Shown here in pieces: positions 27,963 through 39,500 of a stretch of 64,000 bases of DNA. The translations under genes were made by a program, and so were the position numbers. Under the pieces are notes generated by a model that searched no databases, had not been told where the DNA came from, and was given only the letters and a program-made list of their open reading frames with translations. Every line of letters begins with the position of its first letter. The first letter of the stretch is position 1. Source of the stretch: Saccharothrix sp. HUAS TT1 (GTDB lineage: Bacteria > Actinomycetota > Actinomycetes > Mycobacteriales > Pseudonocardiaceae); assembly GCF_040744945.1 (NCBI RefSeq), contig NZ_CP160453.1, positions 8,060,001-8,124,000 of the forward strand, written 5' to 3'.

Positions 27963-29132
27963 ATGGACTTCACGCTTGACGAGGAGCAGAAGGAGATCCG
28001 CGACTGGGTGCGGACCTTCGTGCGCAAGGAGGTGGCGCCCCTGGAGCCGGAGGTGCTGCGCCGCGAGCGCCTGGGGCAGCCCGGCCTGACCCGGGACGAG
28101 CTGAAGGAGCTGCAGGACAAGGCCAAGGCGGCGGGCTTCTTCGGCGTGCTCACGCCGCAGGAGTACGGCGGCATGGGCCTGGGCGCGCTGATGACCGCGC
28201 TGCTGGAGGCCGAGCTGGGCCGCACGTTCGTGCCGTTCCGGTTCGGCGGCTACGCGGACAACATCCTGTTCCACGGCAACGAGGAGCAGAAGCGGCGCTA
28301 CCTGCTGCCCACGATCTCCGGTGAGCGCGTCTCGTGCTTCGCCATCACCGAGCCCGGCGCCGGTTCCGACGCCAAGGCCATCCGCACGTCCGCCCGCAAG
28401 GAGGGCGGCGAGTGGGTGATCAACGGCGAGAAGACGTTCATCACGCAGGGCAACGAGGCCGACTTCGTGATGGTGTTCGCGGTGACGGACCGGGAGAAGG
28501 GCGCGGACGGCGGCGTCACGTGCTTCCTGGTCGACCGGGACATGGGCTGGAAGTCCGAGCCGATCCCGACGATGGGCCAGTGGGGCCCGGCGGCGCTGGT
28601 GTTCGACGACGTCCGGGTGCCCGAGGAGAACGTGCTCGGCGAGGTCGGCAAGGGCTTCCACCTGGCCATGCAGTGGATCGGCCAGGGCCGCTACCTGCTG
28701 CCGGCGCGGGCGCTCGGCTCGTGCGAGCGGCTGGTCGAGATGGCCATCGAGCAGGCCCGCAACCGGGTGACGTTCGGCAAGCCGATCGCCGAGTACCAGG
28801 CGATCCAGTGGATGCTCGCCGACTCGGCGGTGGAGATCGAGGCGTTGCGCTGGCTCGTGCTGCACGCCGCGTGGCTGGTCGACCAGGGCGCGGACTCGCG
28901 GCAGGCGCAGAGCATGGCCAAGCTGTACGGCGGCATCAAGGCCAACGAGATCGTCGACCGGGTCCTGCAGATCCACGGCGGCATGGGCTACACGCGCGAG
29001 CTGCCGATCGAGCGCTGGTACCGGGAGCTGCGGCTGCTGCGCATCTACGAGGGCACCGACGAGATCCAGCGCCGCACCATCGCCCGCAACCTGCTCAAGG
29101 GCCACGCGAAGGTGACCGGGACGCTCGGCTGA
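27963..29132 (+). CDS. Acyl-CoA dehydrogenase (second of pair)
   Basis: A 389-residue paralogue of the preceding enzyme, only distantly similar. Visible are CFAITEPGAGSDAKAIRTSA, the FAD-binding FITQGNEADFVMVFAV region, the RNRVTFGKPIAEYQAIQWMLAD helix and RIYEGTDEIQRRTIARNLLKG near the C terminus, with Glu in the position used as base in most family members. ATG 27963, preceded by GGGAGGA. It probably acts on a related acyl-CoA in the same pathway, under the TetR regulator. Confidence 0.88.
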   Translation: MDFTLDEEQKEIRDWVRTFVRKEVAPLEPEVLRRERLGQPGLTRDELKELQDKAKAAGFFGVLTPQEYGGMGLGALMTALLEAELGRTFVPFRFGGYADNILFHGNEEQKRRYLLPTISGERVSCFAITEPGAGSDAKAIRTSARKEGGEWVINGEKTFITQGNEADFVMVFAVTDREKGADGGVTCFLVDRDMGWKSEPIPTMGQWGPAALVFDDVRVPEENVLGEVGKGFHLAMQWIGQGRYLLPARALGSCERLVEMAIEQARNRVTFGKPIAEYQAIQWMLADSAVEIEALRWLVLHAAWLVDQGADSRQAQSMAKLYGGIKANEIVDRVLQIHGGMGYTRELPIERWYRELRLLRIYEGTDEIQRRTIARNLLKGHAKVTGTLG

Positions 29133-29256
29133 CGGCAGGGCGCGCCCGGGGGCGGACCGCTTCGGCGACCCGGCGGTGGCGGACCGACCTGCGCGGCTGC
29201 TCCTCAAGCAGGCAGCCGAAGCAGGTCGGCGCGCACGGCCTCGACCACCGGCCCGC

Positions 29257-29904
29257 CTACCGGACGAGGCTGGTCAGCATCTGGGCGCAGACCCGGGCCA
29301 GGTGCTTGCGCATCACGTCCGACGCGCGGGTCGGGTCGGCGGCGGCGACCGCCGCGACCAGGGCGTCGTGGTCGTCCAGCGACGCGTGCTGGTGCGGCGG
29401 GTCGTCCCGCAGGCCGCTGCGCAGCAGCACGACCCGCTGCTGCACCAGCCGCACCTGCTCGGCGATCCGGGGGCTGCGCGCCGCGTCCAGCAGCGCCTGG
29501 TGGAAGGCGAGGTCGAGCCGGTACGGGAAGGTCTCGCCCGCCGAGTACGCCCGCCGCGACTCCTCGCACACCGCCCGCAGCCGCACCACGTCCGCCTCGG
29601 TCCGCCGGGACGCGGCCAGCTCGGCCGCCGCGCACTCCAGCGCCGTCCGCAGCTCGAACAGGGCCCGCACGTCGGCGGCGTCGCAGGTCGGCACGGACGC
29701 GCCCCGGTGCGGCGCGAGCACCAGCAGCCCCTCGGACGCCAAGTGCCGGATCGCCTCGCGCAGCGGCCCGCGCGAGATGCCCAGCCGCTGGGCCAGCTCG
29801 ACCTCGTTCAGCCGCGCGCCGGCCGCGATCTCGCCGGTCAGCACCAGCTCGCGCAGCACGTCGACGGCCTGGCCGGCCAGGCTCAGGTGCAAGGGCTGTG
29901 TCAT
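29257..29904 (-). CDS. GntR family regulator (FadR subgroup)
   Basis: A 215-residue regulator: winged helix at residues 8-75 (LRELVLTGEIAAGARLNEVELAQRLGISRGPLREAIRHLASEGL) and an all-helical FCD ligand domain with the metal-site histidines in LDLAFHQALLDAA, LDDHDALVAAV and MRKHLARV. Divergent from the asparaginase gene, with a perfect palindrome at 29941-29954 between them. It likely responds to a carboxylic acid or amino acid; target and ligand are inference. Confidence 0.85.
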   Translation of the reverse strand: MTQPLHLSLAGQAVDVLRELVLTGEIAAGARLNEVELAQRLGISRGPLREAIRHLASEGLLVLAPHRGASVPTCDAADVRALFELRTALECAAAELAASRRTEADVVRLRAVCEESRRAYSAGETFPYRLDLAFHQALLDAARSPRIAEQVRLVQQRVVLLRSGLRDDPPHQHASLDDHDALVAAVAAADPTRASDVMRKHLARVCAQMLTSLVR

Positions 29905-29940
29905 GAACGTCTCCTAGCGCCGGCGGACCCCCTCGATGTT

Positions 29941-29954
29941 AACTGTCGACAGTT
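29941..29954. promoter_or_regulatory. Palindrome between GntR and asparaginase genes
   Basis: Perfect 14-bp palindrome AACTGTCGACAGTT, 37 bases before the GntR start and 27 bases before the asparaginase start. Its position suggests an operator for the GntR protein acting on both genes. Confidence 0.6.
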
Positions 29955-29980
29955 GGCAGCACGCGGTGGAGGTGGGCGGG

Positions 29981-30925
29981 ATGGCGCACGAACTGGTCGC
30001 CGAGGTCTGGCGCGGCGGGTTCCTGGAGTCCGTGCACCACGGTTCGGTGATCGCTCTGGACCGCACCGGCCGGGAGGTGCTGGCCGTCGGCCGGCCGCAC
30101 GACACCACCTACCCGCGCTCGTCGAACAAGCCGGTCCAGGCGCTGGCCATGCTCCGCCACGGCCTGGACCTGGACGGCGAACTGCTGGCGCTGGCCTGCG
30201 CCAGCCACTCCGGCGAGGACTTCCACATCGACGGCGTGCGCCGCGTCCTGCGCGCGCACGGCCTGGACGAGACCGCCCTCCAGTGCACGCCCGACCTGCC
30301 GATCGGCGAGGACGCGCTGAGGGCGCACCTGGCCGCGGGCCGGTCCAAGGCCCCGGAGTACATGAACTGCTCGGGCAAGCACGCCGCGATGCTGGCGACC
30401 TGCGTCGTCAACGGCTGGTCGACCCACGACTACCTCGACCCCGCGCACCCGCTCCAGGCCGCCATCCGCGACACCCTCGAAGAGCTGGCGGGCGAGCCCA
30501 TCGGCGCGGAGGGCGTGGACGGCTGCGGCGCGCCGCTGCTCGGCATCAGCCTGGCGGGCCTGGCCCGGGCGTTCGGGGCGCTGGCGAGCGCGGCGGACGG
30601 CCCGGAGCGGCGGATCGCGCGGGCGATGAACCGGCACCCGGAGTGGGTCGGCGGCACGAACCGCGACGTCACCGAGCTGATGCGGGCCATCCCCGGCGCG
30701 GTCGCCAAGGACGGCGCCGAGGGCGTGTACGCGATCGGCCTGCCGACCGGCGAGGCGGTGGCCTGCAAGATCGCCGACGGCTCCAGCCGGGCCAGGGCCG
30801 TGGTCGTGGTGGCCGCGTTGCGCAAGCTGGGAGTGGCCGCGCCGGACGAACTGGCCACGGTCCCCGTCCTGGGCCACGGTCGCGCCGTCGGCGCGGTGAA
30901 GCCGTCACCCACCTTGGTGAGTTGA
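29981..30925 (+). CDS. Asparaginase (Asparaginase_II family, PF06089 type)
   Basis: A 314-residue protein of the family exemplified by the Rhizobium etli thermolabile asparaginase, distinct from the classical AnsA/AnsB fold. Diagnostic stretches are VEVWRGGFLESVHHGSVIALD, HDTTYPRSSNKPVQALAML, ACASHSGEDFHIDGV and EYMNCSGKHAAMLATC, which contain the Ser, Lys and Cys used in catalysis and metal binding. ATG 29981 follows GGAGG; the ATG at 29936 in the same frame lies inside the palindrome region and is less likely. Probably controlled by the neighbouring GntR. Confidence 0.85.
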   Translation: MAHELVAEVWRGGFLESVHHGSVIALDRTGREVLAVGRPHDTTYPRSSNKPVQALAMLRHGLDLDGELLALACASHSGEDFHIDGVRRVLRAHGLDETALQCTPDLPIGEDALRAHLAAGRSKAPEYMNCSGKHAAMLATCVVNGWSTHDYLDPAHPLQAAIRDTLEELAGEPIGAEGVDGCGAPLLGISLAGLARAFGALASAADGPERRIARAMNRHPEWVGGTNRDVTELMRAIPGAVAKDGAEGVYAIGLPTGEAVACKIADGSSRARAVVVVAALRKLGVAAPDELATVPVLGHGRAVGAVKPSPTLVS

Positions 30926-30951
30926 CCCGGCCGGAGGCTTGAAAGGCCCGT

Positions 30952-30957
30952 TACGCT
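30952..30957 (+). promoter_or_regulatory. -10 element of a leaderless promoter
   Basis: TACGCT, seven bases before the ATG at 30965; no ribosome binding site in between. Confidence 0.55.
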
Positions 30958-30964
30958 GGGATCC

Positions 30965-31279
30965 ATGGCCAGCGCCAGAGCCGCCGACGCACCGGACGAC
31001 CGCCCGATGAGCAGCATCGACGACGAGCTGATCGGCCTCGACCCGGACGACCCCGAGACCAGGGCGTTCGCCGAGCACCTGGGGCGGATGCAGCAGCAGC
31101 CGCCCAGCTTCACCATCGAGGGCACCGTCGCGGGTGTCGGCCAGTTCGCCGACTCCGCGAACCGCGCGGGCGGTCTGCGCCGGCTCACCGCGGTCGTGGT
31201 GGTCGGGCTGATCCTGCTGGGGGTGCTGATCAGCGTCTGGTACTACCTCGGCGCCGTGGTGTGGGTCTTCTTCTACTGA
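30965..31279 (+). CDS. Small single-span membrane protein
   Basis: A 104-residue protein of unknown function: an acidic N-terminal half (SSIDDELIGLDPDDPETRAFAEHLGRM) and one C-terminal membrane helix (LTAVVVVGLILLGVLISVWYYLGAVVWVFFY) that runs to the end. Such proteins are common next to msrB in actinobacteria but remain unassigned. TACGCT seven bases before the ATG at 30965 points to a leaderless transcript; ATG 31007 is the alternative. Confidence 0.7.
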   Translation: MASARAADAPDDRPMSSIDDELIGLDPDDPETRAFAEHLGRMQQQPPSFTIEGTVAGVGQFADSANRAGGLRRLTAVVVVGLILLGVLISVWYYLGAVVWVFFY

Positions 31280-31310
31280 GCCACCCGCCGAGGTCGACTA
31301 ACGTGGAGGT

Positions 31311-31748
31311 ATGGAACCTGTCGTCGGCGCCACCCCGAAGGTGGTCCACTCCGAGGCGGAGTGGCGGGAGATCCTGAACCCCGAGGAGTACGCGGTGCTG
31401 CGCGGCGCGGGCACCGAGCCCGCCTGGGTGGGCGAGTACACCGACACGAAGACCGAGGGCGTCTACGAGTGCCGGGCGTGCGGTGCGGAGCTGTTCCGCA
31501 GCGACACGAAGTTCGACTCGCACTGCGGCTGGCCGTCGTTCTTCTCGCCGCTGGCCGGTGACGCGATCATCCTGCGCGAGGACCGCACCCACGGCATGGT
31601 GCGCACGGAGGTGCTGTGCGCCACCTGCCACAGCCACCTCGGCCACGTCTTCGAGGGCGAGGGCTACGGCACACCGACCGATCAGCGCTACTGCATCAAC
31701 TCGGTGAGCTTGCGCCTGGCCGAGAGCACCGCCGGTCCAGCAGACTGA
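31311..31748 (+). CDS. msrB: Peptide-methionine (R)-S-oxide reductase
   Basis: A 145-residue MsrB that reduces methionine-R-sulfoxide in oxidised proteins. Zinc-binding CxxC pairs are CRAC and CATC (residues about 62-65 and 104-107); the catalytic Cys is C128 in RYCINSVSL; the substrate-site segment is HCGWPSFFSP. ATG 31311 has both GGAGG and a TAACGT six bases upstream, so it may be translated from a very short or absent leader. Stand-alone, no MsrA fusion. Confidence 0.92.
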   Translation: MEPVVGATPKVVHSEAEWREILNPEEYAVLRGAGTEPAWVGEYTDTKTEGVYECRACGAELFRSDTKFDSHCGWPSFFSPLAGDAIILREDRTHGMVRTEVLCATCHSHLGHVFEGEGYGTPTDQRYCINSVSLRLAESTAGPAD

Positions 31749-31795
31749 ACGCGCTACTCCGGATGATGATGATCGTTTCCACACCAGGAGGAATC

Positions 31796-31861
31796 ATGCG
31801 CATCTTCAAGGGTACCGACGGCGAAGGCTCCGACGGCGTGGACGGCGCGTCGTCTTCCTGA
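31796..31861 (+). CDS. 21-residue Gly/Asp/Ser-rich peptide
   Basis: A 22-codon ORF starting MRIFKGTDGEGSDG and ending in three Ser. AGGAGG lies five bases before the ATG, stronger than at most genes here. It sits between msrB and the TIGR04222/DUF692 locus and is followed at once by a dyad (31879-31931). It could be a small peptide gene, a modified-peptide precursor or a leader peptide that controls the genes downstream; it has no Cys. Expression is not shown. Confidence 0.45.
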   Translation: MRIFKGTDGEGSDGVDGASSS

Positions 31862-31878
31862 CGCTCCCGCCCGCCTGA

Positions 31879-31931
31879 CCAGGCCGGAACCCTAAGGCTT
31901 GCTCAAGCACCCTTGTCGGGGTGTGGCCTGG
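31879..31931 (+). promoter_or_regulatory. Structured leader before the TIGR04222 locus
   Basis: Outer inverted repeat CCAGGCC (31879-31885) / GGCCTGG (31925-31931) enclosing CACCC/GGGTG (31909-31922). It begins 18 bases after the 21-codon ORF. A terminator or attenuator is possible; weaker evidence than for the other hairpins. Confidence 0.4.
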
Positions 31932-31991
31932 CGCACACGATTGGCTCCTGGCTGGTGGACCTGGTTCCACCGAAGCCCACAGGGGGTGACC

Positions 31992-32897
31992 GTGGAGCGA
32001 CCGTGGGGGTTTTCCGGCCCGGAGTTCCTGGAGTTGTACTGGGTCGCGCTGGCCATCTCGTCGGCCTTCGCGATCTTCGTCCGAGTGCGCCTGCGGGGGA
32101 CGCGGGGAGGCGCCCCCGCAGGCGCGCTCGGGTTGCTGGACATCGCCTACCTGACCGGCGGACCGCGACGCGTGGTCGAGACGTCGGTCGCCGACCTCAT
32201 CGCGTCGGGCGCGCTGGTGGCCGCGCGCAACGGGGCGGTGCGCGTCGCCGGGTCGCCGGTGGGCGCGCACCCGGTCGACCGGGCCGTGCTGGCCGACGCG
32301 AAGCGGCACCGCTACCGGACGTTGACGCTGCTCATCGCGGCGGTGTCGGAGCACCACGCGCCGCGCGAGGTCGGCCTCCGCCTGGCCGAACTGGGCTACC
32401 TGGTCGAGCCCGCGAAGCTGAAGTCGGCGCGGCGGCTGGGTGTGGCGCCGATGCTGCTGCTGCTCGTCGTGGGCGTGGCGCGCTGGGTGAACGGGCTGGC
32501 GATCGGCGCGCCCGTGGGGTGGTTGACGCTCCAGCTCGTGCTGACCGGTCTGCTGGTCGTGCTGCTGCTGAGGGCGAACCCCTTGACGCGCACCGCGAAG
32601 GGCAGTGCCGCGGTGGCGGAGGCTCGCGCGGGCGAGAGCACCGGGGGGTGGGGAGGGACCGGTTCGGCGCGCGACGCCGAGCTGGTCGCTCTCCGCGGTT
32701 TCGGCCACCACCCGAACGTCGTGCTGCGCGCCGCGGTGCGCCCGCACCCGCGGGCCCGCTCGCGGTCGGACAGCGGGGCCTACGCGGCCGGCGGGGTGTA
32801 CACCACGAGCAGCGCCGGGTGCGGTGGTTCCAGCAGCTGCGGCGGTTCGTCGAGCTGCGGTGGCGGTGGGGGCTGTGGCGGTGGCGGCGGGAGCTGA
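31992..32897 (+). CDS. TIGR04222-type membrane protein A with Cys/Gly/Ser tail
   Basis: A 301-residue protein. N-terminal membrane helix (FLELYWVALAISSAFAIFV), a conserved soluble segment (LGLLDIAYLTGGPRRVVETSVADLI), a helical domain with HHAPREVGLRLAELGYLV, then two more helices (MLLLLVVGVARWV and LTLQLVLTGLLVVLLL). The last 28 residues are almost only Gly, Ser and Cys (four Cys, in CGGSSSC-type spacing). This domain plan matches TIGR04222 proteins, known to be encoded near DUF692 enzymes. GTG 31992 is favoured by AGGGGG five bases upstream; GTG 31986 is the alternative. Probably a membrane-anchored substrate of the DUF692 enzyme (inference). Confidence 0.8.
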   Translation: MERPWGFSGPEFLELYWVALAISSAFAIFVRVRLRGTRGGAPAGALGLLDIAYLTGGPRRVVETSVADLIASGALVAARNGAVRVAGSPVGAHPVDRAVLADAKRHRYRTLTLLIAAVSEHHAPREVGLRLAELGYLVEPAKLKSARRLGVAPMLLLLVVGVARWVNGLAIGAPVGWLTLQLVLTGLLVVLLLRANPLTRTAKGSAAVAEARAGESTGGWGGTGSARDAELVALRGFGHHPNVVLRAAVRPHPRARSRSDSGAYAAGGVYTTSSAGCGGSSSCGGSSSCGGGGGCGGGGGS

Positions 32898-32937
32898 ACC
32901 GGCCTTCCGCGGCCCGTGCGGCTCTTAGGGTGACGTC

Positions 32938-33849
32938 ATGACGTTCCTGTGGTGGTACGGCCCGGCGCTCGTCGTCGCGGTGGTCGTCGGTCTGCGGTTG
33001 AAGCGGGTCGCCGGCGCCGCGCCCGACCGGCCGCTGACCTTCGAGGAGGTCGGGTACCTCGGCGGCGGGCCGGTGCGAGCGGTCGAGGTGGCGCTGGCCG
33101 GGTTGGTGGCCGAGAACCGGGCGAAGGTGTCCGGTCCGGTGGCCTCGGCGGTGCCCGGCCCCGACGAGCCGGCGACCGCCCTGCAGCGGGTCGTGCTCAC
33201 CCGGCTCTCGCAGCCACGGGACCTGGACGAACTGGTCGTCGGCGTGGCCACCAGCGGCCCGGCCCGGCAGATCGGGCAACGCCTGGTCGCCGGTGGCCTG
33301 CTGGTGTCGCCACGACGGCGGTTGGCCCGCGCGGTGCTGGCCGTCCTGCCGCTGGTGGCGCTCGCGGCGGCCGCGGTGGTGGTCGTCGTCACGGGTCCGG
33401 GCGGGTGGGCGCCGGTCACCGCGCTGTGCGTCACGGGAGCGCTGGCGGTCCTGCTGCTGCTGGGCCCGCCGCCCGTGCTGACCAGGAAGGGCGCGCGGGC
33501 GTACGAGGAGGCCACCGCGGGCCTCGCCCCGGTCGACCCGGCCGAGGTGACCGCCCGTTACGGCCTGGTCCGCGCCGCCGTCCCGCCGGAGCCGCGCGAG
33601 GGGTCGGCGCGGGCGGCGACGGGGGTGTTCGACGGCGAACGGGTGGAACCGATCGCACCTGCGGAAACGTCCGAGGCACCGCTTCCCCGGCGCAGGCGTG
33701 CCGTGGTGGTCGAGCCGCAACGCTGGCAGCGCCGCAACGGGTGGTTGGTGGCCGGTGGGTGGTTCGCGGGTGGTTGGTTGGCCGCGCAGTGGTTGGAGGG
33801 TGATGACGGTGGCGACTTCGTGGACGGCTTCGGCGGGTTCGACGCCTGA
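32938..33849 (+). CDS. TIGR04222-type membrane protein B, without Cys tail
   Basis: A 303-residue paralogue of protein A: N-terminal helix (FLWWYGPALVVAVVVGL), the family segment LTFEEVGYLGGGPVRAVEVALAGLV, a helical domain (ARQIGQRLVAGGLLVSP), and two central helices (AVLAVLPLVALAAAAVVVVV and VTALCVTGALAVLLLLG). The C-terminal 100 residues are hydrophilic and end in [13 protein letters not shown], with no Cys cluster. It may be a partner or scaffold rather than a substrate. The ATG at 32938 follows protein A by 40 bases; protein C starts inside its 3' end. Confidence 0.78.
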   Translation: MTFLWWYGPALVVAVVVGLRLKRVAGAAPDRPLTFEEVGYLGGGPVRAVEVALAGLVAENRAKVSGPVASAVPGPDEPATALQRVVLTRLSQPRDLDELVVGVATSGPARQIGQRLVAGGLLVSPRRRLARAVLAVLPLVALAAAAVVVVVTGPGGWAPVTALCVTGALAVLLLLGPPPVLTRKGARAYEEATAGLAPVDPAEVTARYGLVRAAVPPEPREGSARAATGVFDGERVEPIAPAETSEAPLPRRRRAVVVEPQRWQRRNGWLVAGGWFAGGWLAAQWLEGDDGGDFVDGFGGFDA

Positions 33850-34678
33850 CCCGGGCGGACCCGGTCCGGGTCAGGTCGGGTGGGGCGCGGTCCAGGCCGG
33901 ATCGGTGGACCGGACGGGGCTCACGCTGGAGGAGCAGGGCTTCCTCGTCGCCGGTCCCGGCCGGGCGGCCGAGGTCGCGGTGGTGGCGCTGGTCGAGGCC
34001 GGCGCGGTGCGGATCTCCCGCGAGGGCAAGGTCAGCGCCATCGGCCGACCGCGGGCCGCGAGCCCGCTCCAGGACTGCGTCCTGCGCAAGCTCTCCCGCC
34101 CGCTGGGCGACGTGATCGCCTCGACGGCGAGCAGCGGCGAGGCGGGCGCCCTCCGCCAACACCTGGTCGAGCGCGGTTTCGTCGTGCCGGCCGGGCGACG
34201 GCGGGTCGTGCGCGGGCTGAGGTACGCGGTGGTGGCCGCGGCGGTGGCGCTCGTCATCATCACGATGGCGCTGGAGCTGCCGTTCGCGGTGGCCGCCGCC
34301 GCGGTGGTCGGCGGTGTGCTGCTGTCGGTCCTGCTGGGCAGGCTGGGCCGTCAGCTGACCGGCGCCGGGCGGGCCGTGGTGCGCCGGCTGGACCGGATCG
34401 CCGTGTCGCCGAACCGGATCGCCCTGGTCGCCTACTACGGGCTGCTGGGCAAGGGCGGGCGCCACCACGTGTGGGAGACGTTGGGCCTGTCACCGGCGGC
34501 CTCGGCGACGTTGCGGCGGCGGGACCGCGTGCGCGGGTCCAGCGGTGGCGCGTCCTGCGGCGGCGGGTGCGGCAGCTGCGCCGGCAGCGGGTGCGGCAGC
34601 GGCAGCAGCGGCGGCTCGGACAGCGGCGGCTCGTCGTGCGGTGGTGGCGGGTGCGGTGGGGGTGGTGGCGGTGACTGA
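33803..34678 (+). CDS. TIGR04222-type membrane protein C with Cys/Gly/Ser tail
   Basis: A 291-residue paralogue: the family segment [28 protein letters not shown], the domain [17 protein letters not shown], two membrane helices ([19 protein letters not shown] and [17 protein letters not shown]), and a C-terminal tail of about 45 residues with seven Cys among Gly and Ser. The usual first membrane helix is missing. ATG 33803 follows GGAGGG and overlaps gene B by 47 bases, giving translational coupling. The strongest candidate for modification by the DUF692 enzyme, whose gene overlaps or abuts this one. Confidence 0.78.
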
Positions 34679-34709
34679 CGGACAGCGGACTCAGGGAAGC
34701 AGGTCGCTC

Positions 34710-35510
34710 GTGGACGACAAGTTGGGCGTCGGCATCGGCTGGCGGCCGGAGATCGACCTCACCGTCGAACGCCTGCCGGGCGTCGACTTCGTCGAGGTCG
34801 TCGCGGAGAACCTGCACGCCGGGCGCCTGCCCGAGTCCGTCCTGCTGCTGCGCGAACGCGGCATCCCCGTGCTGCCGCACGCGGTCTCGCTCTCGCTCGG
34901 CGGTGCGGAACCCGTGGACGCCGCGCGGGTCGCGCACCTCGCCGCCCTGGCCGAGGAGCTGGACGCCCCGCTGGTCAGCGACCACGTCTGCTTCGTCCGC
35001 GCGGGCGGTCTGGACTCCGGGCACCTGATGCCCCTCCCCCGCACCCGCGACGCGCTCGACGTCCTGGTCGCCAACGTCAAGGCCGCCCAGCGGGACCTGC
35101 CGGCGCCGCTCGCCCTGGAGAACGTCGCCGCCCTCCTGGACTGGCCGGACGGCGAGCTGACCGAGGGCCAGTTCCTCGCCGAGCTGGTCGACCGCACCGA
35201 CTGCCACCTCCTGGTCGACGTGGCCAACCTCTACGCCAACGCCCGCAACCTCGGCACCGACGTGGCCCGCTTCCTGGACGAGATCCCGCTGGAACGCCTC
35301 GCCTACGTCCACGTCGCCGGCGGCGTGGAGCACCAGGGCGTCTACCACGACACGCACGCCCACGCCGTCCTCCCCGAAGTCCTGGACGTCCTGGCCCAGC
35401 TCCGGGCCCGGGTCGACCCGCCCGGCGTCCTCCTCGAACGCGACGACCACTACCCGGCCGACGCCGAGCTGGCCGCCGAGCTGGCCGCGATCCGCCGGGT
35501 GCTGGGGTGA
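34710..35510 (+). CDS. DUF692 (MNIO) multinuclear iron-dependent enzyme
   Basis: A 266-residue TIM-barrel protein of the DUF692 family, which includes MbnB and TglH; characterised members use two or three iron ions to rearrange or oxidise residues, mostly Cys, in ribosomal peptides. The metal-site residues are in place: H92 (SDHVCF), E137/N138 (LENVAAL), D170 ([11 protein letters not shown]), H201 (VHVAGG), D214/H216 (HDTHAH) and E243 (LERDDHYP), plus [10 protein letters not shown] at the start. GTG 34710 gives the normal N terminus; GTG 34671, overlapping gene C, is possible. Overlaps the next gene by four bases (GTGA). Likely substrate: the Cys-rich tails of A and C. Confidence 0.87.
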
Positions 35511-35851
35511 CCGGTCCGCAGCGCGAGCGGCTGGCGGCGGCGCAGGCCGAACTGCTCAGGGCGCTGCTGGCCGGCGGCGAGGCGCCCGCGGGCTTCGACC
35601 CGGACCGGTTCCGGGTCGAGAAGCGGGCGTTGCTGAACAAGCGGCGCGGCATCGTGGAGGCGTTGCGGCCGGACGTGGCCGCCGAGCTGGGTGAGCGGTT
35701 CCGCCCGCTGTTCGACGCCTACGCGGCGGACCACCCCAAGGAGGTCGGCACGCGCTTCCGCGAGGACGCCGCCCGGTTCGCCGAGTGGGCCGTCGCACGG
35801 GGCGAGCTGGCGCCGCCGAAGAAGAAGCGCTGGTGGCGTCGCGCAACCTGA
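35507..35851 (+). CDS. Small partner-like protein of the DUF692 enzyme
   Basis: A 114-residue, all-helical soluble protein ([19 protein letters not shown], then [21 protein letters not shown] and [17 protein letters not shown]) with a basic end. Other DUF692 enzymes act with a partner protein (MbnC, TglI or the DUF2063 type) that binds the substrate leader. The helical pattern vaguely resembles the N-terminal half of DUF2063, so I propose that role, but homology is not established. GTG 35507 overlaps the DUF692 stop, a firm sign of coupling. Confidence 0.72.
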
Positions 35852-36369
35852 TCGCCCCCGCGCTCCGTCCCCGTGGCATGTGGGGACGAACCTGGCCGTT
35901 GGGCCTGCTGTTGCTGGCCACGGCGTGCGGCATGAACCAGGCGGGTGAGGGCGTGGACTGCCCGGCCATCGGCACGGCCGTCGGCGTGAGCGTCGACATC
36001 GCGCACCCCGACGTGGTTTCCGGTTCGATCGAGGTTTGCTGGGACGGTTCCTGTGCAACCCCGGCACTGGAGCTGTACCCGTCGAGCGCGGTCGTCGAGG
36101 AGACCTGCACCGGCACCGCCCCGGATGACTCGTGCAGCGCGCGCTCCGAACCGACCGGGGGCAGGCACGGGTTCGCCACCGTCCCGCAGCTGCCGGCCAA
36201 GCCCGTCGCGGTGACCCTGCGGCTGCTGGACCAATCCGGATCTGCGCTGGTGGACCGCGAAATAACGGTGGTACCCGAAATGGTCCACCCCGGCGGTCCG
36301 GACTGCCCAGCGGGTGGACCGCAGGCAGGCATCTCAGTTGGTGCCGACGGCTCAGCAACCGCCCGGTGA
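35833..36369 (+). CDS. Putative lipoprotein of the DUF692 locus
   Basis: A 178-residue exported protein with lipobox LLLLATAC, then a mature part with six or more Cys (VDCPAIG, EVCWDGSC, EETCTGTA, DDSCSAR, PDCPAGG) that probably form disulfides. Function unknown. GTG 35833 overlaps the preceding gene and gives a more basic signal-peptide start; ATG 35878 is the alternative. It is last in the locus and is followed by a hairpin. Whether it works with the enzyme is inferred only from position. Confidence 0.7.
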   Translation: MASRNLIAPALRPRGMWGRTWPLGLLLLATACGMNQAGEGVDCPAIGTAVGVSVDIAHPDVVSGSIEVCWDGSCATPALELYPSSAVVEETCTGTAPDDSCSARSEPTGGRHGFATVPQLPAKPVAVTLRLLDQSGSALVDREITVVPEMVHPGGPDCPAGGPQAGISVGADGSATAR

Positions 36370-36383
36370 GCAACCACTCACTC

Positions 36384-36420
36384 CGCTGAATTGGTCAAGA
36401 ACATACCGACCAATCAGCGG
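36384..36420 (+). terminator. Terminator after the DUF692 locus
   Basis: CCGCTGA-A-TTGGTC pairs with GACCAATCAGCGG: a 13-bp stem with one bulged A and an 11-base loop, 14 bases after the lipoprotein stop. Confidence 0.65.
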
Positions 36421-36557
36421 CTGCTCGCCCCTTCGGAAGCCTCTAGCGTCGGTGACGTCCAGGGCAAAGTCGCTCCCGGTAACTCCGCCGACACCGCGGG
36501 TTGCAACGCCCTTCCGGCCGCGTCCGCCATGCGCGGCACCTCACCGGGAGGTTCGAG

Positions 36558-39500
36558 TTGAAGAGCAAACGTTGGCGTGGCCTGACGTGGGGAGCCGCGC
36601 TCGTCGCGGCCGTCCTCACCGCGAGCAGTCCGGGCGTGTCGGGCGCGGAGGACGCGCCGCCGCCGCTGGGCGGGACGACCGGCGGCGAGCACCACGAGGT
36701 CACCCTGATCACCGGCGACAAGGTCGTGCTCCTCGGTGACGAGGTCAGCGCGCTGGTCGCCGCGCCGGGCCGGGAGCGGGTGGTGTTCCACAGCTACCGG
36801 CGGGACGGGCGCCTGCACGTCCTGCCGCGCGACGCGGCGCGGGCCGTGGCCCGGGGCAAGCTGGACCCGAGGCTGTTCGACGTCACGGGACTGGTCGAGG
36901 CCGGCTACGACGACGGCAGCCGCGACTCCGTGCCGCTGATCGTGACCGGTGAGCAGGAGCCGGCGACCGCCGGGCTGCGCGTCGGGCACCCGCTGCCCGC
37001 GGTCGGCTCGTACGCCGCGCAGGTGGTCAAGTCCCAGGCGTCGGACACCTGGCGCACGCTCGTGTCGAGGGCGAGCGTGCGCAAGGTGTGGCTGGACGGA
37101 TTGCGCCGGCCGAGCCTGGACCGCTCCACCGCGCAGGTCGGCGCGCCGACCGCGTGGCGGGCCGGGCACACCGGCAAGGGCGTGAAGGTGGCGGTGCTGG
37201 ACACCGGCGTCGACCAGGACCACCCGGACCTGGTCGGGCACGAGGTCGCGGAGCGCAACTTCACCGACGACCCGGACAGCACCGACGGCGTCGGCCACGG
37301 CACGCACGTCGCCGCGACGATCGCGAGCTCCGGCCCGGAGTACCGGGGCGTCGCGCCGGACGCGGACCTGTTGGACGGCAAGGTGTGCGCCGTCGCGGGC
37401 TGCCAGGAGTCGGCGATCGTGGCCGGCATGCAGTGGGCCGCGGAGCAGGGCGCGGACATCGTGAACATCAGCCTGGGCGGCGGCGACACGGCGGAGACGG
37501 ACCCGCTGGAGGAGGCCGTCAACACGCTGTCGGCGCGGACCGGCGTGCTGTTCGTGGTCGCGGCGGGCAACAACTCCCGCCCGGAGACGATCAGCTCGCC
37601 GGGCAGCGCCGACGCCGCGCTGACGGTCGGCGCGGCGGACCGGGACGACAGCATCGCGCCGTTCTCCAGTCGCGGACCACGGGTCGGCGACGGCGCGGTC
37701 AAGCCCGACATCACCGCGCCCGGCGTGGACGTCGTGGCGGCGAAGTCGAGCAGCGGCACGATCGGCACGCCGGTCGCCGACGGCTACGTGGCCATGTCGG
37801 GCACGTCGATGGCCACCCCGCACGTCGCGGGCGCGGCAGCCCTCCTGGCCCAGCAGCACCCGGACTGGACGGGCGCGCAGCTCAAGGCCGCGCTGATGGC
37901 GTCGGCGAAGCACAACCCGGAGCTGACCGCGTTCGACCAGGGCGCCGGCCGCGTCGACCTGACCAGGGCCATCACCACCGCGGTCACCGCCGAACCGGCC
38001 AGCCTGGCGATGGGCCTGCAGAGGTGGCCGCACGGCGACGACACCCCGATCACCAGGACCGTCACCTACCGCAACGAAGGTGCCTCGCCGATCACGCTGG
38101 CGCTGACCGCGAGCGCGGAGGGCCCGAACGGCGACGCCGCGCCCTCCGGCCTGGTCGCCGTGTCACCGGCGAAGGTCACCGTCCCGGCGGGCGGCGAGGC
38201 GGCGGCCACCGTCACCGCGAACACCCGGCTCGGCTCGGCGGACGGCCTGTACGTCGGGTCGGTGGTGGCCACCGGCGGGCCGACCCCGCTGCACACCGCG
38301 CTGAGCGTGAACCGGGAGGTGGAGAGCTACGACGTGTCGTTCGACTTCGTGGACGCCGCAGGAGCGCCCTCGGCCGACTACTACACGTCGATCATCGGGC
38401 TCAGCAACGACACGTTCGCCTTCCCCTACGACGCGGACGGCTCGTTCACGCTGCGGCTGCCCAGGGGCGAGTACTTCACCAACTCCGACGTGCAGACCGA
38501 CGACACGCGGTTGGCGCTGCTGCCCCGGCCGGGGCTCAGCGTCACGGCGGACACCACCGTGGTGCTCGACGCGCGCACGGCCAAGCCGGTGAAGATCACC
38601 GCGCCGGACGCGGGCGCCGAGGAGGCGTTGGGCGACATCACGATGGTGCGCGCGCAGGGTGACCGGTCGGCCAGCGTGAGCACCGCGTTCCTCGGCGGGT
38701 TCGGCCCGAACGTGTCCATCGCGCACGTGGGTCCCGAGCTGGCCGCCGGTGAGCTGACGGCGTTGCTGGGCGCGCAGTTCCGCGGCACGCCCGAGGGCGA
38801 CGAGCCGGTGACCTACCGGTTCGCCTGGTCGCAGCAGGGGAAGGCGCCATCGGGGTTCGTCCGCGCGCCGGCCGCGACCGACCTGGCGGAGGTGCGCACG
38901 ACGTTCGGGCCCGGTCCGGCGGACCGGCGGTTCGGCCACGGCGGCAACCCGGTCACCGCGGCCGGTGTCGGCGGCTGGGCGTGGCTGTCGGACGTAACCT
39001 CGCCGGGCGCGGCGATCGACCGGGTCACGCCGGGATCGGCCTGGTCGTGGGGTTTCCTGCAGTTCGGCGCGGACGACGTGGTCGAGGCGACGCTGACCTC
39101 GCCGGAGCGCGCGTACCAGCGGGGCGGAACGCACCAGGAGCGGTTCAACGACCCGGTGTTCTCCCCCGCGCTGCCCGAGGCGCGGTCGCCGTACTTGGCG
39201 CGCGGCGGCGACGAGATCAGCTTCGCGCTGCCGCTGTTCACCGACCGGGCGGGCAACGGCGGCAACGCGGCGGTCTCCTCGGCCCGGACCACGTTGCTGC
39301 GCGACGGGGTCGAGGTCGGCGAAACGGCGCACGCGGCCAACGGGCTGTTCGAGGTGCCGCCCGGCGCGGCGGCGTACCGGGTGGAGACCGAGGCGGTGCG
39401 GGCCGCCGGCACGTCGGAGTTCGCCACCGAGGTGAGCGCCGCGTGGACGTTCCGCTCGGACACGGTGGCCGGTGACGACTTCGCGCCGCTGCCGCTGTCG

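What the first reader, a model, noticed from the sequence alone, without database searches (positions are those of the whole stretch)
31992..36369. TIGR04222 Cys-tail membrane proteins with a DUF692 (MNIO) enzyme: a probable membrane-anchored RiPP-like system
Seen: three related membrane proteins (two ending in Gly/Ser tails with four and seven Cys), then a DUF692 enzyme with its full set of metal-site residues, a 114-residue helical protein overlapping it, and a Cys-containing lipoprotein, all on one strand with overlaps or short gaps. Known: DUF692 enzymes (MbnB, TglH and others) modify Cys or nearby residues in ribosomal peptides with a partner protein, and TIGR04222 proteins occur near DUF692 genes. 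Inference: the tails of A and C are modified while tethered in the membrane, giving a surface metal-binding or signalling structure rather than a released peptide. I know of no experimental account of this type of locus.
Basis: partly seen in the sequence, partly recalled or inferred. Interest (0 to 1): 0.85.

Follow-up and report, generated by a model that had tools for sequence, protein, structure and literature searches.

The report
Cysteine-tailed membrane proteins with MNIO enzyme
A soil actinobacterium has a gene set, of a kind already predicted in print, in which an iron enzyme and its helper probably alter cysteine-rich tails of membrane proteins; comparing many genomes supports the enzyme-tail link and suggests that the tails here face the inside of the cell rather than its surface.

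Summary
The operon is real: three TIGR04222 proteins (A and C with Cys/Gly/Ser tails, B without), a DUF692/MNIO enzyme, a 114-aa helical protein and a genus-restricted lipoprotein-like gene. The central idea (TIGR04222 Cys tails as MNIO substrates, 'PME-type 2' partner) was published as a prediction in 2025 (PMC12452194); I found no experiment. Added here: (1) TIGR04222 and MNIO genes co-occur almost one-to-one in three genome samples; outside genus g9, 93 of 93 genomes with the two adjacent have a Cys-tailed protein, against 2 of 11 genomes without MNIO. (2) A partner domain follows, or is fused to, the MNIO at 113 of 114 such loci; it usually ends in a strongly basic, often Trp-rich segment (possible membrane anchor). 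(3) Charge bias, a paralogue lacking the first helix, DUF2207 homology and a tentative GOLPH3-like fold favour a cytosolic tail at this locus, not a surface one. Against: 11 of 18 g9 genomes keep MNIO beside TIGR04222 proteins without Cys tails, and about half of the Cys-tailed relatives in other genera have a fourth hydrophobic segment that could put the tail outside. Modification and function are untested.

The parts
31992..32897 (+). A: TIGR04222 membrane protein, 301 aa, three predicted transmembrane helices, disordered C-terminal tail with four Cys (residues 277, 283, 289, 295)
   Evidence: 130 bits; Cys positions; model: helix 10-35, alpha/beta middle domain 48-134, helices 140-171 and 176-193, short helices 224-235 and 243-249, tail pLDDT about 43
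32799..32894 (+). Cys/Gly/Ser tail of A, probable MNIO substrate
   Evidence: sequence; Cys-tail/MNIO association
32938..33849 (+). B: TIGR04222 paralogue without Cys tail; ends in a hydrophobic then acidic/aromatic segment
   Evidence: 90 bits; similar copies without tail Cys at many loci of the genus
33905..34678 (+). C: TIGR04222 paralogue lacking TM1 (two-helix hairpin only), tail with six Cys; start uncertain (33803/33809/33905)
   Evidence: 75 bits; no hydrophobic segment upstream
34541..34675 (+). Cys/Gly/Ser tail of C, probable MNIO substrate
   Evidence: Cys 218, 222, 225, 230, 245, 250 of the 257-aa reading
34671..35510 (+). E: DUF692/MNIO enzyme (start uncertain, candidates 34641-34722)
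   Evidence: PF05114 281 bits; closest NCBIfam model BufB 202.7 bits, below its 310 cut-off; motifs kept vs 3bww, 8hci, 7fc0
35507..35851 (+). P: partner protein, 114 aa, PF26136 'SCO6045-like C-terminal domain'; four-helix model whose first PDB match is MbnC, the partner of the MNIO MbnB (weak)
35810..35848 (+). basic/Trp C-terminal segment of P, possible membrane-surface anchor
   Evidence: alignment; charge statistics
35878..36369 (+). L: small lipoprotein-like gene, genus-restricted, not part of the conserved core

Best explanation
The conserved core is Cys-tailed TIGR04222 proteins plus an MNIO enzyme plus a PME-type 2 partner. The cytosolic MNIO (E), positioned by its partner (P), whose basic/Trp end may dock on the inner face of the membrane, oxidatively modifies Cys residues in the flexible tails of the membrane proteins A and C. 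In this genus the tails stay attached to a membrane-anchored domain on the cytosolic side. The likely product is a set of Cys-derived metal-binding groups (by analogy 5-thiooxazoles, as in bufferins/captophorins) held at the inner membrane surface, acting as a tethered metal (copper-like) buffer or sensor. Shown by computation in the samples used: operon, families, co-occurrence, co-loss cases, near-universal partner domain. Inferred: that the tails are the substrate, their side of the membrane, partner docking. Analogy only: chemistry and metal role.
For: TIGR04222/MNIO co-occurrence: own family 157 both, 8 TIGR04222 only, 2 MNIO only, 82 neither (two broken MNIO genes, G443 and G561, are counted as present); second family 86/3/1/31; phylum sample 29/1/7/361; Fisher p 1e-53, 3e-24, 2e-36, not corrected for phylogeny. 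Outside g9, 93/93 genomes with MNIO-adjacent TIGR04222 genes have a Cys-tailed one, against 2/11 genomes without MNIO. In genus g238 a genome that lost MNIO between conserved flanks has a Gly-rich tail with no Cys; another with MNIO split over three frames has one Cys (tails). Partner domain within 1.5 kb after the MNIO domain at 113/114 loci, E below 1e-7, none in reversed or shuffled controls. Partner C-termini net +4 or more at 63/70 separate and 20/21 fused close relatives, 0 in seven neighbour families; 91/112 in the wider set. Topology: K+R density higher on the predicted cytosolic side in 185/190; 26 paralogues without TM1. The model of A has GOLPH3/Vps74, cytosolic proteins as I recall, among its best VIA rows, over a range that includes the segment before the tail, with weak profile support.
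Confidence: 0.55

Rival explanations
1. The tails are MNIO-modified but end up outside the membrane, as the first reader and Antoine et al. 2025 propose: a surface metal-binding or signalling structure.
For: PMC12452194 predicts extracytoplasmic tails (passages). A fourth hydrophobic segment followed by few K/R is present in about half of the Cys-tailed proteins outside the window's genus and g9. Bufferins sequester copper in the periplasm (same paper, passage).
Against: For A the segment is not hydrophobic (crude score 9.47; medians of the three helices -0.4 to 0.7) and is followed by many Arg; 0/20 Cys-tailed full-length proteins of the genus pass. C has only a two-helix hairpin after an N-terminal domain without a hydrophobic start. 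The AlphaFold2 model of A gives two short helices there.
Confidence: 0.25
2. The MNIO acts on another substrate; the Cys tails are unmodified metal-binding or redox tails that happen to be co-inherited.
For: g9 genomes keep the MNIO without Cys tails, or without any TIGR04222 match.
Against: In G619, which lost MNIO, the tail is Gly-rich but has no Cys; the more remote protein of G414 is similar. Cys is followed by Gly in 595 of 740 cases against 59% Gly in the tails; FonB prefers a small residue at that place in its EGKCG repeats (PMC12668002, passages). No other convincing Cys-rich short ORF was seen at 11 g9 loci inspected by eye.
Confidence: 0.15
3. The tails are by-products of GC-rich simple-repeat expansion with no function.
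For: Apart from Cys the tails are 59% Gly and 32% Ser.
Against: Cys number and position look constrained (145 of 169 Cys-tailed proteins have 3-7 Cys in the last 60 residues; 77 of 169 end two residues after the last Cys), and Cys presence goes with MNIO.
Confidence: 0.05

Closest known systems
TIGR04222-MNIO-PME2 gene clusters (Antoine et al. 2025, PMC12452194; abstract, section 19 and passages seen)
   Same: Same families, C-terminal Cys/Gly/Ser tails, adjacent MNIO, PME-type 2 partner.
   Different: The paper puts tails in the periplasm, finds PME-type 2 in 'at least 10%' of TIGR04222 clusters (a denominator that includes clusters without MNIO) and says many clusters with both genes appear to lack a partner; here a partner domain is at 113/114 loci with both, and the tails of this locus are predicted cytosolic.
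Bufferins / captophorins (BufAB, Hvf, FonABC)
   Same: BufB is the best-scoring NCBIfam MNIO model for E; small residue after Cys; partner protein.
   Different: Those precursors have Sec signal peptides and DUF2063 PME-type 1 partners (PMC12452194); here the candidate substrate is an integral membrane protein and the partner is PF26136. E is below the BufB cut-off.
MbnB-MbnC (methanobactin)
   Same: MNIO plus helical partner; MbnC is the top PDB match of P.
   Different: MbnA is a short free peptide (recalled); 7% identity to MbnC over 94 aligned residues.
ChrH-like MNIOs acting on C-termini of proteins over 30 kDa (PMC12636315, abstract seen)
   Same: Precedent for an MNIO subfamily modifying the C-terminal end of a large protein.
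   Different: Different MNIO subfamily (ChrH model 52.7 bits, cut-off 600).
DUF2207 membrane proteins
   Same: A protein of the same genome with DUF2207_N and DUF2207_C domains is matched by the TIGR04222 model (33.7 bits, E 1e-7, below cut-off) within its DUF2207_C part.
   Different: Long N-domain before the shared part, no Cys tail in that protein; no MNIO link tested.

Membership tests
TIGR04222 (near_uncomplex) | score over the curated cut-off (43 bits) | tested here: met
   A 130, B 90, C 75 bits
MNIO / DUF692 (PF05114) | score over the cut-off and conserved motifs of the metal site | tested here: met
   281 bits vs 25; motif alignment to 3bww and TglH; ligand identity is recalled
BufB bufferin maturase (NF050167) | equivalog cut-off 310 bits | tested here: not met
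   202.7 bits
MNIO partner PME-type 2 | encoded right after the MNIO and not passing the DUF2063 model | tested here: met
   4-nt overlap with the MNIO; DUF2063 15.7 bits vs 27.2; PF26136 precomputed
MNIO partner PME-type 2 | fold related to DUF2063/known MNIO partners | tested here: inconclusive
RiPP precursor | modified residues | not testable with these tools
   needs mass spectrometry
RiPP precursor | release of the modified core by proteolysis or export | not tested
   no protease or exporter was looked for across loci; only the window's own neighbours were tracked
Bufferin-type precursor | N-terminal Sec signal peptide | tested here: not met
   C has no N-terminal hydrophobic segment; A starts with a helix followed by a domain on the other side. 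By hydropathy only; no signal-peptide program was run
GPP34/GOLPH3 family (PF05719) | Pfam gathering score | tested here: not met
   no PF05719 match for A, B or C up to E 0.1
GPP34/GOLPH3-like fold | structural match standing clear of unrelated folds | tested here: inconclusive

The most novel reading that the evidence does not exclude
MNIO enzymes have a branch that modifies integral membrane proteins on the cytosolic face: a GOLPH3-like domain with a transmembrane hairpin presents a flexible Cys/Gly tail to a membrane-docked enzyme-partner pair, making a permanently tethered, multi-site metal-binding surface inside the cell (a protein modification rather than a released RiPP).
Probability: 0.35. 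Interest if true: 0.8.

Novelty: new member of a known kind. Interest (0 to 1): 0.55.

Why it matters
TIGR04222 with MNIO occurs in 157 of 249 and 86 of 121 sampled genomes of two families, yet I found no experimental test of such a locus. If the tails are modified in place, MNIO chemistry extends from small exported peptides to resident membrane proteins. The near-universal PF26136 partner and the natural MNIO losses tell an experimenter which proteins to co-express and which genomes are natural controls, and the side of the membrane on which the tail lies becomes a direct test between this reading and the published one.

Tried and rejected
Separate Cys-rich peptide at g9 loci: 11 loci inspected by eye (two of them have Cys-tailed TIGR04222), none convincing; a short Cys-containing repeat ORF at the contig end of L085 was left aside. 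Lipoprotein as core component: rejected. Cytosolic tails for the whole family: I first concluded this from charge bias, then found the fourth hydrophobic segment in many relatives, so the claim is limited to the window's genus, the g9 Cys-tailed proteins and the 26 paralogues without TM1. The list of 30 includes four fragments that start late in the model (L202, L076, L220, L226), left out of the 26; of the 26, one is borderline (L165, 1.47) and three have under 19 residues to score upstream. The 'before TM1' stretch can reach upstream of the true start. Foldseek gave no significant PDB match for A (best E 2.5) or P (best E 1.3). Profile searches of PDB sequences gave ChaB at E 0.19 for P and no convincing relative for A (best E 0.013, in the low-complexity tail). 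No tRNA in the window, no Rfam match at gathering score in 29000-38000, no PHROG match for A, P or L. The first GPP34 alignment (30 proteins) gave p 0.06-0.11; p 0.0018 came after adding 19 more diverse sequences, so it is a second attempt, and global mode was weaker (p 0.025 to 0.9). Helix cut-off 1.6, weights and the Cys-tail rule (at least two Cys in the last 60 residues and at least half G/S/C in the last 40) are my own choices. Pfam scans did not return PF26136 although one search lists it; unexplained. One search left out ORFs running off a contig and hits under 50 bits; so G013 dropped out (12 genomes without MNIO became 11).
Full report
WHAT IS THERE. The six ORFs are present as described. 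A (31992-32897), B (32938-33849) and C (to 34678) pass the NCBIfam TIGR04222 cut-off with 130, 90 and 75 bits; E is an MNIO enzyme (PF05114, 281 bits); P (35507-35851) is a 114-aa helical protein; L (35878-36369) is a small lipoprotein-like gene. A has four tail Cys, C six tail Cys and one in the body, B no tail Cys. The nearest named relatives are Saccharothrix and Actinosynnema proteins, so the window is probably from that group; the genome itself is unnamed. Genus and family handles (g9, g238, f3) are unnamed too; g9 was called 'strep' in my scripts, which is a guess.

ALREADY KNOWN. Antoine et al. 2025 (PMC12452194; outline and abstract, passages, section 19) describe TIGR04222 proteins as putative MNIO substrates with C-terminal Cys/Ser/Gly tails, associate them with PME-type 2 partners, and model a 115-aa Saccharothrix partner. 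They report that more than a quarter of TIGR04222 proteins lack C-proximal Cys and that 490 of 1372 genomes with TIGR04222 lack MNIO. My searches found TIGR04222 in two papers only; searches on MNIO with Actinomycetota, on DUF692, on SCO6045 and on recent MNIO/RiPP papers showed no experiment on such a locus in their listings. The one SCO6045 paper lists the gene in an RNA-seq table (passage).

CO-OCCURRENCE. TIGR04222 versus MNIO: phylum sample of 398 genomes, 29 both, 1 TIGR04222 only, 7 MNIO only, 361 neither; own family, 249 genomes, 157/8/2/82; a second family f3, 121 genomes, 86/3/1/31. Fisher p 2e-36, 1e-53 and 3e-24, ignoring relatedness. The two broken MNIO genes (G443, G561) count as present here. 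These TIGR04222 searches scored only 7, 11 or 21 first-look candidates per genome, so further paralogues may be missed. The paper's looser figure may reflect a different sample and threshold.

TAILS TRACK THE ENZYME. I read TIGR04222 ORFs at 160 fetched regions and the window, plus four short loci. Genomes with MNIO: 102 of 119 have a Cys-tailed TIGR04222 at the loci read; genomes without: 2 of 11 (p 6e-6). I chose the regions, mostly around MNIO genes, so this is not a random sample. Of the 17 misses, 12 are g9 and five are genomes where only an unlinked gene was fetched. With MNIO-adjacent genes only (within 4 kb, same strand), 93 of 93 genomes outside g9 and 7 of 18 inside it have a Cys tail. 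Seventeen Cys-tailed copies outside that limit occur in MNIO-bearing genomes (one, in G614, lies just beyond the 4 kb in the same cluster), so action in trans is possible. The two exceptions without MNIO are G486 (draft of 480 contigs) and G493 (below).

NATURAL LOSSES. In genus g238, G619 has no MNIO trace in the 13-kb region (tblastn) or in the genome search, while the genes directly on both sides are conserved at about 77-87% identity; its tail is Gly-rich with no Cys. G443 has the MNIO in three frames and one tail Cys. G561 keeps fragments and three Cys; G493 keeps a 37-residue trace and four Cys, three in the last 60 residues. Elsewhere G414, with a more remote protein, has a Gly/Ser-rich tail with no Cys. 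The order fits enzyme loss first and Cys loss later, but the cases are few.

NEIGHBOURS. MsrB and the 104-aa membrane gene upstream are matched at 26/49 and 24/49 MNIO loci of other genera of the family; asparaginase-like, regulator, acyl-CoA dehydrogenase, S8 protease and L genes at 5-10 of 49 (regions differ in reach). In f3 only one S8 match appears in 20 loci. So the core is tail protein, MNIO and partner.

VERDICT. A well-supported member of a published, untested kind. The comparative results strengthen the enzyme-tail link, make the partner general in the loci read, and move the tails of this locus from the surface to the cytosol as the better guess.

Noticed in passing
g9 loci, e.g. L072:7314-8108, L081:6851-7657: Tail-less TIGR04222 proteins next to MNIO carry a repeated Cys pair in or just after the first helix (C-A/T-R-L-C-L-A pattern seen by eye), possibly another MNIO target.
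   Followed up: no
L207 (G443), L224 (G561), L235 (G493), L234 (G619): Four MNIO decays or losses in one genus, differing in extent, with the TIGR04222 gene kept.
   Followed up: yes
L182, L183, L229, L104: A second MNIO class (340-368 bits against PF05114) in the same families, without TIGR04222 neighbours and without the PF26136-type partner profile.
   Followed up: partly
window:32938-33849 and similar copies: B-type paralogues of the genus end in a hydrophobic plus acidic/aromatic segment instead of a Cys tail.
   Followed up: no
L187, L196, L203: Single operons hold one Cys-tailed protein with a fourth hydrophobic segment and another without TM1, which predicts tails on opposite sides of the membrane if the segment spans it.
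   Followed up: partly
G000:C1:494413-494901 (L005): DUF2207 protein found by the TIGR04222 model, indicating that the two families are related.
   Followed up: yes
g9 loci upstream of the MNIO, e.g. L085:6067-6780: A gene of about 235 aa precedes the MNIO in most g9 loci printed; by its position it may be the peptidyl-tRNA-hydrolase-like adjamnio-II of the 2025 paper (not scanned here).
   Followed up: no
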